Shown in pieces: positions 16 to 44,238 of a stretch of DNA of 49,875 nucleotides. This DNA comes from an uncultured Treponema sp. (GTDB lineage Bacteria > Spirochaetota > Spirochaetia > Treponematales > Treponemataceae). Under the pieces are notes generated by a model, which saw only the letters and a program-made list of their open reading frames with translations, was not told the DNA's origin and did no database searches. The position numbers and the translations under genes were made by a program. The stretch lies in NCBI GenBank assembly GCA_947174385.1, contig CAMWIU010000002.1, positions 1-49,875 on the forward strand. Reading direction: 5' to 3'. Each line of letters begins with the position of its first letter. Positions within the stretch are counted from its first letter, which is position 1.

Positions 16-47
16 TTGACCTACCCCCCCCCATTATACGGTATAAT
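16..47 (+). promoter_or_regulatory. Promoter with a nine-C tract in its spacer
   Basis: TTGACC at 16-21 and a perfect TATAAT at 42-47 are separated by 20 bp, longer than the usual 17. The spacer holds a run of nine C at 24-32. Slippage in this run would change the spacing directly, so expression of the lipoprotein at 84 may be tunable. The boxes and tract are seen; the switching is inferred from homopolymer-controlled promoters known in T. pallidum tpr genes. Confidence 0.6.
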
Positions 48-83: not shown

Positions 84-563
84 ATGAAAAAGATTTGCAA
101 AAGTGTGGCGGTTTTCGCCACTGTGTTGGGACTCGCTTGCATGACTTCATGCGTAAGCGTTGGAGACCTTGTCGGCTCGATGTTTGGCGGCGGCGGAAGC
201 GGCAATCGAGTCGCAATACTTGACGGTCGCAACAATGGTGCACCATATAGTAATATAGATCTTAGTTCTAATGGCAAACTGGTAGCGCAAAAACCTAACA
301 GTGTCAATGAAATCAAAGGAAAATGGGAAACCAGCGGAAACAAGGATTCTTTGAATAATGGCGACACGATAACGGTAACGATTGAGGAAACGACTGGAAA
401 GGGAACAGTGCGTCAAATAAGCAGCAAATTTGTTCCGGGAGATCCCAGCACTTCCAACAGCGACAAGCCCGTAACAGATCATACCGTCATAACATATTCG
501 GTAAATTTGGGCACATTAGGCACTTATACCTATGTAGTGAAAAAATACGAGTCCAACAAATAA
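84..563 (+). CDS. Small putative lipoprotein, unknown function
   Basis: A 159-residue protein with a basic N-terminus, a hydrophobic stretch (about residues 7-19) and a relaxed spirochaetal lipobox, M-T-S-Cys23, so it is probably exported and lipid-anchored. A Gly-rich linker (about 34-40) follows. The rest is polar and beta-rich with the motif I-K-G-x-W near residue 78, which recalls lipocalin-like folds but is not diagnostic. A good Shine-Dalgarno (AAGGAG, 71-76) supports the ATG. It stands alone, with its own promoter and a terminator just downstream. I do not recognise a specific family. The C-terminus (YTYVVKK) and the IKGxW motif resemble parts of the phase-variable lipoprotein at 42841-44170. 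Confidence 0.75.
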   Translation: MKKICKSVAVFATVLGLACMTSCVSVGDLVGSMFGGGGSGNRVAILDGRNNGAPYSNIDLSSNGKLVAQKPNSVNEIKGKWETSGNKDSLNNGDTITVTIEETTGKGTVRQISSKFVPGDPSTSNSDKPVTDHTVITYSVNLGTLGTYTYVVKKYESNK

Positions 564-42800: not shown

Positions 42801-42835
42801 GAACGCCCGACAATTTATCAGGCGTTCATATTTTT
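42801..42835. terminator. Bidirectional terminator
   Basis: GAACGCC (42801-42807) pairs with GGCGTTC (42821-42827). T-rich DNA follows on the plus side (42829-42835) and A8 precedes it (T8 on the minus strand). It serves the convergent M16-like gene and the lipoprotein gene. Confidence 0.75.
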
Positions 42836-42840
42836 ACAGG

Positions 42841-44170
42841 CTATTGTTTTTTGTAGATATAGGTATAATACTCTTCTTCTTTGTTAGACCACTCTGATGA
42901 CTGCAGTTCGCTTCCGTCTTTAGAAAGTTTCAATTTGCAATCTTCAAAATATTCTGAAAGCGCAGTGTTTTCGGTAATTTTTCCAATTACCGTGTAATTA
43001 GAAACTTCTATCGTATCTCTAAGCTCCTTATATATGTAATTTTCCCAATATCCTTTCTCTTCTTCTGTAAATGTACTGCCATCTATTTTTGTGTATATCT
43101 CGATAAATTCGTCATGAAGACTTTGGGCGTTAATAGTAACAATTTCAGTACATTCACATTTTAAAGGTATTCTATGATTGTCATCGACATTGAAATTTTC
43201 TTCCCAGTAATCCGAGATTTTCCACGTTCCTTTGATTTTCGCAACATCTGTAGGATTGTTTATATCGATAGTTGTCCATAGAAGAGCCTCGTCGCCCAGA
43301 TATGGAGTTTCGTAGCAAAAGTTTTCCCATTGGTAGTTATAAGTTTTGCCATTGTAGTTGTATTCCAAACATGGGCGTATGCAAAGAAAATCGATTTTTA
43401 TCAAATCGCTGTCTTTCCAACCTTTCGTGCTGGCATCGGTGTAGAGATTGCACCATTCTGTAAGAGATGCTCTAGGAATAGGGAATTGGGCGCGCCACTT
43501 TGTTTTGCGAGCCTCTCCGTGCTCCCATGAAATGCCTTCCACCAGTCCGATGTTTTCTTTCCAGTCATAGTCCTTACCATCGTAGTCTTTGCCTGTGAGT
43601 GCCGACTCGCCGTAAAATTCCGGTTTCTTTGTAAATCTGAAATCACCATTGCTTTTAACTTCTATAGCTCCTTTGTATTTCAGACGCACTTCGCCTTTGC
43701 TATTCGCTCCTGCCGTCACTTTTGTTTCAAACCAGTTAATAACATCGCCTGAGGATATGACGAAATCTCCATTCAGTATCTCAGTTTCTTCAAATACTAT
43801 GCGGATTGTATATGTTTTATTTGGCTCAAGGAAAGGATAAAAGAAACTGCCTTTGTCTTTGCTTTCCTTATGAAATTCTTCGGCAACTTGTCCTATTCCA
43901 TCAATTTGTACCCAAGCCCTATTTCCACCAAAAGTATTTGCAGGAACATCAAATGTAAGGAAGATGCCAGCAGGTTCTTGTTCAACTTTAAAATCGTAAA
44001 TTCTTTTGCTTTCATCAGGTGGGTCGCCGAGCGAATAGTTTATGCTCGATTGGCTATCTTGCGGGTTTCCTCCCGAGCCTGCGCTGTTAGCGCATGAAAT
44101 GAATGATAGGGCAACTACAAAAACAAGAGTTGTAAATACCCCCCCCCATACAGGTGAATTGGTTTTTCAT
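42841..44170 (-). pseudogene. Phase-variable lipoprotein gene, out of frame at a G9 tract
   Basis: A gene starting at ATG 44170 behind GGAGG reads eight codons (M-K-N-Q-F-T-C-M) into nine G (44147-44139) and stops after 27 codons at 44087. The adjacent frame is open from there to 42841 without any ATG, GTG or TTG before 43719. With 8 or 11 G the frames join into a 442-residue protein with a hydrophobic segment and lipobox F-I-S-Cys26, followed by a Ser/Gly linker. The mature part is acidic and rich in aromatic residues, with I-K-G-T-W like a lipocalin strand. No family is recognised. The DNA is more A+T rich than neighbours. I call it an OFF-phase gene, not a dead one, because the rest of the frame is intact. 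Confidence 0.85.
44139..44147 (-). repeat. Homopolymeric G9 tract (contingency locus)
   Basis: Nine C on the plus strand, G on the coding strand, inside the signal-peptide codons. Length 8 or 11 restores the reading frame; the length here (9) does not. Confidence 0.85.
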
Positions 44171-44211
44171 TTTTTCCTCCAATGAAAAATTTTTCAAAAA
44201 TTATATTTAAG

Positions 44212-44238
44212 TTTATAGCAGAAGTTTGTGCGTGTCAA
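44212..44238 (-). promoter_or_regulatory. Candidate promoter of the phase-variable lipoprotein
   Basis: On the minus strand TTGACA (44238-44233) is followed by TATAAA at 15 bp or TAAACT at 17 bp. The start would fall about 35-40 bp before the ATG. Confidence 0.5.

What the first reader, a model, noticed from the sequence alone, without database searches (positions are those of the whole stretch)
42841..44170. Phase-variable lipoprotein switched OFF by a nine-G tract
The coding strand has ATG 44170, GGAGG, eight codons, then nine G. In this sequence the frame stops at 44087, but the adjacent frame is open to 42841 with no start codon until 43719. Eight or eleven G would join a complete signal peptide (lipobox Cys26) to a 416-residue mature part. 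This is the layout of a slipped-strand contingency locus for a surface-exposed lipoprotein, unassigned to any family I know.
Basis: partly seen in the sequence, partly recalled or inferred. Interest (0 to 1): 0.85.

Follow-up and report, generated by a model that had tools for sequence, protein, structure and literature searches.

The report
Gut Treponema lipoprotein with poly-G switch
A run of nine G's near the start of a surface-lipoprotein gene in a gut Treponema throws the gene out of frame, most likely as a reversible on/off switch, and the same kind of nine-G run, nearly always followed by a pyrimidine and a purine, recurs at over 40 other places in this genome.

Summary
Observation confirmed: 44170-42841 (-) has SD + ATG, a 9-G tract (44147-44139), a stop at 44087, and a 432-codon open frame in another register with no start before 43719. 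A syntenic ortholog in another Treponema MAG (G098) carries 10 G and one unbroken lipoprotein frame. Four paralogs carry nine G at the same place and are frame-broken. The window's frame is under purifying selection (dN/dS 0.26), so it is not a decayed pseudogene. The protein matches no Pfam family; its model is two Fn3-like sandwiches plus a lipocalin-like barrel. The locus is one of about 45 G8-10 tracts in this genome, lying in lipoproteins, BspA-LRR proteins, glycosyltransferases, DNA-methylation genes and promoter spacers: a poly-G phasome like that of Campylobacter. New and unexplained: in this clade G-runs almost vanish at 7 and spike at exactly 9, and the tract is followed by pyrimidine-purine (189/190 in four genomes; mostly TA), against 14/30 in other families and about 40% for short G-runs. 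Length switching itself was not observed (no reads). Locus: new member of a known kind; the G9-YR rule may be a new variant.

The parts
44233..44238 (-). candidate -35 (TTGACA); a TATAAA lies at 44217-44212 (15-nt spacer)
   Evidence: sequence; not tested, low confidence
44176..44180 (-). Shine-Dalgarno GGAGG, 5 nt before the ATG
44148..44170 (-). start codon and first 23 nt (MKNQFTC + AT): n-region of the signal peptide
44139..44147 (-). nine-G tract, 3' neighbour TA (pyrimidine-purine)
44087..44170 (-). register read at nine G: ends at a stop (44089-44087), product 27 aa = OFF
42841..44139 (-). downstream open register: rest of signal peptide (VFTTLVFVVALSFISC, lipobox FISC) and mature lipoprotein, TAG at 42843-42841
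43291..44007 (-). two Fn3-like beta-sandwich domains (P0001 residues about 45-145 and 152-283)
   Evidence: AlphaFold2 model pLDDT 79.9, VIA-align Z 6-7 to Fn3 domains
42844..43278 (-). C-terminal lipocalin-like beta-barrel domain
   Evidence: model pLDDT 89.7, best Z 5-7.7, mostly lipocalin/FABP-type barrels
42801..42827 (-). inverted repeat GAACGCC...GGGCGTTC followed by a T run: likely terminator
   Evidence: sequence
24..32 (-). second tract of the same kind in the window (C9 on + strand) between TTGACC (16-21) and TATAAT (42-47), 20-nt spacer, upstream of lipoprotein gene 84..563(+)

Best explanation
The locus is a translational phase-variation switch. Slipped-strand mispairing during replication changes the length of the G tract in the signal-peptide region of a lipoprotein gene. 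When the length puts the ATG in register with the 432-codon frame, a full signal peptide with lipobox is made and the lipoprotein is exported and lipidated. At nine G, the state in this assembly, translation stops after 27 residues and the gene is OFF. The protein is a modular lipoprotein (two Fn3-like domains and a lipocalin-like barrel), probably surface-exposed and involved in host, mucus or phage interaction. It is one of about 45 poly-G contingency loci in this Treponema. Shown: tract, broken register, intact ortholog with a different tract length, paralogs with the same tract, selection on the frame, genome-wide repertoire. Inferred: replication slippage as the cause, reversibility, surface exposure, function.
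For: Ortholog L052/L057 (G098:C18, JAAVAP010000018.1, 85% aa identity, same upstream flavodoxin/ferredoxin-type gene) has 10 G and a single frame from ATG to stop. Paralogs L051 (G000:C1, 956-codon frame with three repeats) and L054, L055, L056 (G098) have nine G at the same point of the signal peptide and are out of register. Another lipoprotein pair in G098, L069 (9 G, OFF) and L080 (10 G, ON), shows the same alternation. dN/dS 0.26 over 422 codons with no internal stop, against 0.055 for the neighbouring gene. The G-run spectrum spikes at 9. Tract-bearing genes include glycosyltransferases, an MmeI-type methyltransferase, an HsdS-type gene, BspA-LRR proteins and lipoproteins, in both ON and OFF registers. 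Literature: T. pallidum poly-G tracts vary in vivo, nine G being commonest at tprL (PMC7864442); Campylobacter poly-G/C tracts peak at 9 (53%) (PMC6321876).
Against: No read data or second strain of the same species, so length polymorphism within a population was not seen. Most orthologous tracts keep exactly nine G between the two species. MutS and MutL are present, so there is no mismatch-repair defect to raise slippage. Consensus MAG sequence reports only the majority length.
Confidence: 0.88

Rival explanations
1. The gene is a decaying pseudogene: a chance frameshift has inactivated it for good.
For: The frame is broken as read, and dN/dS is higher than for the neighbour (0.26 against 0.055). 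One paralog (L055) also has an internal stop.
Against: 432 codons without a stop; dN/dS 0.26; ortholog intact; the frameshift sits exactly in a homopolymer shared by five homologs.
Confidence: 0.05
2. The nine-G call is an assembly or sequencing error and the gene is constitutively ON.
For: Draft MAG-like assembly; homopolymers are error-prone; two contig ends in this genome (C103, C143) carry obvious poly-G artefacts.
Against: Nine is the modal length at about 40 internal tracts in G000 and 57 in G098, many at syntenic positions. Errors would not produce a pyrimidine-purine 3' flank in nearly every case.
Confidence: 0.04
3. The tract is a programmed transcriptional or ribosomal frameshift site that always yields some full-length product from the nine-G allele, without genetic switching.
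For: Exact nine is strongly conserved across species, as a slippery signal might be.
Against: The same tracts sit in promoter spacers and on either strand relative to genes, where mRNA slippage cannot matter. Some homologs are already in frame (L052, L080).
Confidence: 0.04
4. G9-YR is primarily a DNA-binding or recombination motif and frame breaking is a side effect.
For: Sharp length peak and nearly invariant pyrimidine-purine 3' flank in promoters, signal peptides and mid-gene alike; rule absent in other families.
Against: Tract positions and gene classes are those of contingency loci; lengths 8 and 10 also occur with the same flank; a mere binding site inside reading frames should stay in frame.
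Confidence: 0.07

Closest known systems
Poly-G/C phase-variable ORFs of Campylobacter (the Campylobacter phasome; PMC6321876)
   Same: Intragenic G tracts, modal length 9, tens of loci per genome, ON/OFF by frame.
   Different: Peak much sharper here (57 of 78 runs of G7-10 are 9 in G098, against 53% of tracts of 7 or more). Several tracts lie in promoter spacers. A strict pyrimidine-purine 3' flank is seen here and was not tested in Campylobacter. MutS and MutL are present here.
Treponema pallidum poly-G tracts (tprE/G/J, tprL, tp0126; PMC7864442)
   Same: Same phylum; poly-G of 7-11 with nine commonest at tprL; the tp0126 tract lies between -35 and -10, as do several tracts here including window 24-32.
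   Different: The studied pallidum cases act on transcription; this locus acts on translation inside a signal peptide. No sequence family shared.
Neisseria poly-G/C switches (porA and opc promoters; hmbR reading frame)
   Same: Homopolymeric tract in promoter or frame of surface proteins (discussed in PMC7864442; PMC3786947 abstract).
   Different: Unrelated genes and organism.

Membership tests
Poly-G (SSR) translational phase-variable locus | Homopolymeric tract of 7 or more G between start codon and the bulk of the ORF | tested here: met
   Nine G, 23 nt from the start of the ATG
Poly-G (SSR) translational phase-variable locus | Tract length decides reading frame; both ON and OFF registers occur among homologs | tested here: met
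   G9 OFF in window, G10 ON in ortholog L052; L069/L080 pair
Poly-G (SSR) translational phase-variable locus | Downstream frame maintained by selection | tested here: met
   dN/dS 0.26
Poly-G (SSR) translational phase-variable locus | Tract length varies at high frequency within a population | not testable with these tools
   No reads or same-species genomes available
Bacterial lipoprotein (signal peptidase II substrate) | n-region, hydrophobic h-region and lipobox Cys within about 30 residues | tested here: met
   MKNQFTC...VFTTLVFVVALSFISC, Cys26; relaxed spirochaetal lipobox FISC (by inspection)
Known protein family (Pfam, NCBIfam, PDB) | Significant profile or sequence match | tested here: not met
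   No Pfam hit up to E=1, none for homologs, no PDB sequence hit; NCBIfam only TIGR01671 at 16.9 bits, far below its cut-off of 41.3
Fn3 / lipocalin-like folds | Structural match well above background | tested here: inconclusive
   Z 5-7.7, within the range of common arrangements

The most novel reading that the evidence does not exclude
In this Treponema clade poly-G contingency tracts are created and held by a sequence-directed process: a G-run grows only next to a pyrimidine-purine step on its 3' side and is locked at nine. A specific protein or polymerase context would set both the position and the length of tens of genetic switches per genome. Cases where a relative lacks the tract show a short G-run already followed by the same YR (GGCGAG, GGGGCAAA, GGGGGGTAAA), which fits growth next to a pre-existing YR.
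Probability: 0.35. Interest if true: 0.8.

Novelty: new member of a known kind. Interest (0 to 1): 0.55.

Why it matters
Poly-G phase variation in treponemes is known mainly from T. pallidum. A phasome of about 45-65 loci in gut treponemes shows that commensal relatives use it heavily, for surface proteins, glycans, DNA methylation and possibly even a Cas12a promoter. The clade-specific rule, nine G followed by pyrimidine-purine (189/190 against 14/30 in other families), is a simple statistical handle on an open question: what makes a homopolymer a stable contingency tract. It can be tested directly with reporters in a laboratory E. coli strain.

Tried and rejected
Family identification of the lipoprotein: Pfam, NCBIfam and PDB sequence searches gave nothing; Foldseek gave no E of 0.001 or less for the whole model or the C-terminal domain. 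Loss of mismatch repair as cause: rejected, MutS and MutL are present in tract-rich and tract-free genomes. Shared longer motif or mobile element around the tracts: rejected for the set as a whole, since information beyond the tract and YR is weak and comes from mixing promoter and signal-peptide classes; one multicopy family (L025/L036/L037/L049) does share flanks. Target-site duplication (TAT...TAT) around the tract: seen at some loci only, not general. Literature search in the held library found no report of a phasome in gut Treponema or of a YR rule; subscription papers are not held.

Full report
WHAT IS THERE. The minus strand from 44180 reads GGAGG-AAAAA-ATG; the tract of nine G (44147-44139) begins 23 nt after the A of the ATG and is followed by TATTTACAACTC. 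From the ATG the frame gives 27 residues and stops at 44087. The register beginning with GTA at 44139 is open for 432 codons to a TAG at 42841 and has no start codon before 43719.

THE ORTHOLOG AND PARALOGS. The downstream frame was searched in 200 genomes of the genus. One other genome, G098 (JAAVAP010000018.1, 'Treponema sp. isolate Mgla_MAG_20-bin_15'), has an ortholog at 85% identity next to the same upstream gene, and its tract is ten G. There the ATG and the long frame are one, giving MKNKFMYGGGVLATLFLATLICFASC... So an intact copy exists, with a different tract length. A paralog in the window's own genome (G000:C1, three repeats) and three in G098 have nine G at the corresponding point of the signal peptide and all are out of register. 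A second lipoprotein pair in G098, L069 and L080, differs by nine against ten G and by OFF against ON.

NOT A PSEUDOGENE. Between the window (OFF) and G098 (ON) dN/dS is 0.26 over 422 codons; the neighbouring gene has 0.055. The gene evolves faster than its neighbour but under clear constraint.

THE PROTEIN. No Pfam, NCBIfam (above cut-off) or PDB sequence relative. The AlphaFold2 model (pLDDT 79.9) shows two beta-sandwich domains that resemble Fn3 (Z about 6-7) and a C-terminal barrel (pLDDT 89.7) that resembles lipocalin/FABP-type barrels (Z up to 7.7). These Z values are in the range of common arrangements, so the folds are suggestions. Export as a lipoprotein follows from the signal peptide and lipobox; surface exposure and binding function are inference.

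ONE OF MANY. The genome holds about 45 internal tracts of 8-10 G. G098 has 66 in the loci examined. Around those of G000 lie, by Pfam or NCBIfam: two glycosyltransferases, a formyltransferase, a methyltransferase, an N6/N4 DNA methylase, an HsdS-type specificity domain, an MmeI-type enzyme split by its tract, BspA-LRR and Fn3 proteins, a trypsin-like protease split by its tract, LuxR-type 7TMR-DISM regulators, FtsW/RodA, FeoB and a TetR-type regulator, plus many lipoproteins. Where the tract lies in a reading frame both ON and OFF registers occur. Where it lies in a promoter it separates TTGACA from a TATAAT-like box with spacers of 15-20 nt, rarely 17; in T. pallidum tp0126 a 17-nt spacing is optimal (PMC7864442). 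The window's own second tract (24-32) is of this promoter kind, with a 20-nt spacer.

THE LENGTH AND FLANK RULE. In 2.06 Mb of G098 the numbers of G-runs of length 5 to 10 are 357, 40, 3, 11, 57, 7, with none of 11 or 12; the G000 sample behaves alike. A continued geometric decline would give well under one run of nine. The two bases 3' of the tract (8-10 G) are pyrimidine then purine in all 48 G000 tracts and in 64 or 65 of 66 in G098 (one base is N). In exact-nine tracts of four tract-rich genomes the count is 189 of 190 (G098 56/57, G097 41/41, G099 48/48, G221 44/44), mostly TA. Controls: short G-runs (G3-G6) in the same genomes are 34-49% YR and 1.5-9% TA; exact-nine tracts in other families of the order are 14 of 30 YR and 2 of 30 TA; base +1 is A in 50 of 150 listed tracts there (my count) and in none of 117 listed here. 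The rule is weaker in some members of the genus (G121 23/43, G179 14/25). It holds for promoter, signal-peptide and mid-gene tracts, so it acts on DNA, not on mRNA or protein. Three tract-free counterparts show a short G-run already followed by the same YR (L114, L146, L185), which suggests that tracts grow next to a pre-existing YR.

HOW IT MOST LIKELY WORKS. Slippage of DNA polymerase in the G tract adds or removes bases; nine is the favoured length, and a consensus assembly reports that favoured length at nearly every locus. At this locus nine is OFF, so most cells of the sampled population probably lacked the protein while a minority made it. In G098 the population majority was ON. Slippage, reversibility and rate are inferred from known systems (Campylobacter tracts peak at nine, PMC6321876; T. 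pallidum tprL mostly nine with 7-11 in vivo, PMC7864442). Mismatch repair genes are present, so a repair defect is not the cause.

WHAT IS KNOWN AND WHAT IS NEW. The switch belongs to the known kind of poly-G contingency locus; the gene family is undescribed in the libraries used. The strict G9-YR rule was not found in the papers searched, but other poly-G organisms were not tested here, so whether it is new remains open.

Noticed in passing
window 24-32: A C9 tract sits between TTGACC and TATAAT (20-nt spacer) of the lipoprotein gene 84..563, a second, promoter-type switch in the same window; a homologous arrangement exists in G098 (L110) and at G000 L017.
   Followed up: partly
L020 1501-1509 (G000:C39:5639-5647) and L082: A G9 tract lies between TTGACA and TATAAT about 115 nt upstream of a Cas12a gene (TIGR04330, 313.8 bits over the N-terminal part held), 97% identical in two species: possibly a phase-variable CRISPR effector.
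   Followed up: partly
L132 13240-13247 (G000:C4): An eight-G tract splits an MmeI-type restriction-methylation gene into two registers: possible phasevarion. Tracts also lie in an N6/N4 methylase (L016) and an HsdS-type gene (L019).
   Followed up: partly
L025, L036, L037, L049; L058, L094, L095, L102, L112: A multicopy family with conserved flanks CCTCCTATACGTAT-G9-TATAACGACCTAGG; on the C strand the tract lies just upstream of a Shine-Dalgarno-like AGGAGG. Gene family not identified.
   Followed up: no
L042 2082-2134 (G000:C103 end), L050 (C143 end): Runs of 53 G and messy G-rich sequence at contig ends look like two-colour sequencing artefacts; they were left out of the counts.
   Followed up: yes
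G121 (genus relative): This genome has 74 exact eight-G runs, mostly followed by A (often CGGGGGGGGA), a different repeat that does not follow the YR rule.
   Followed up: no
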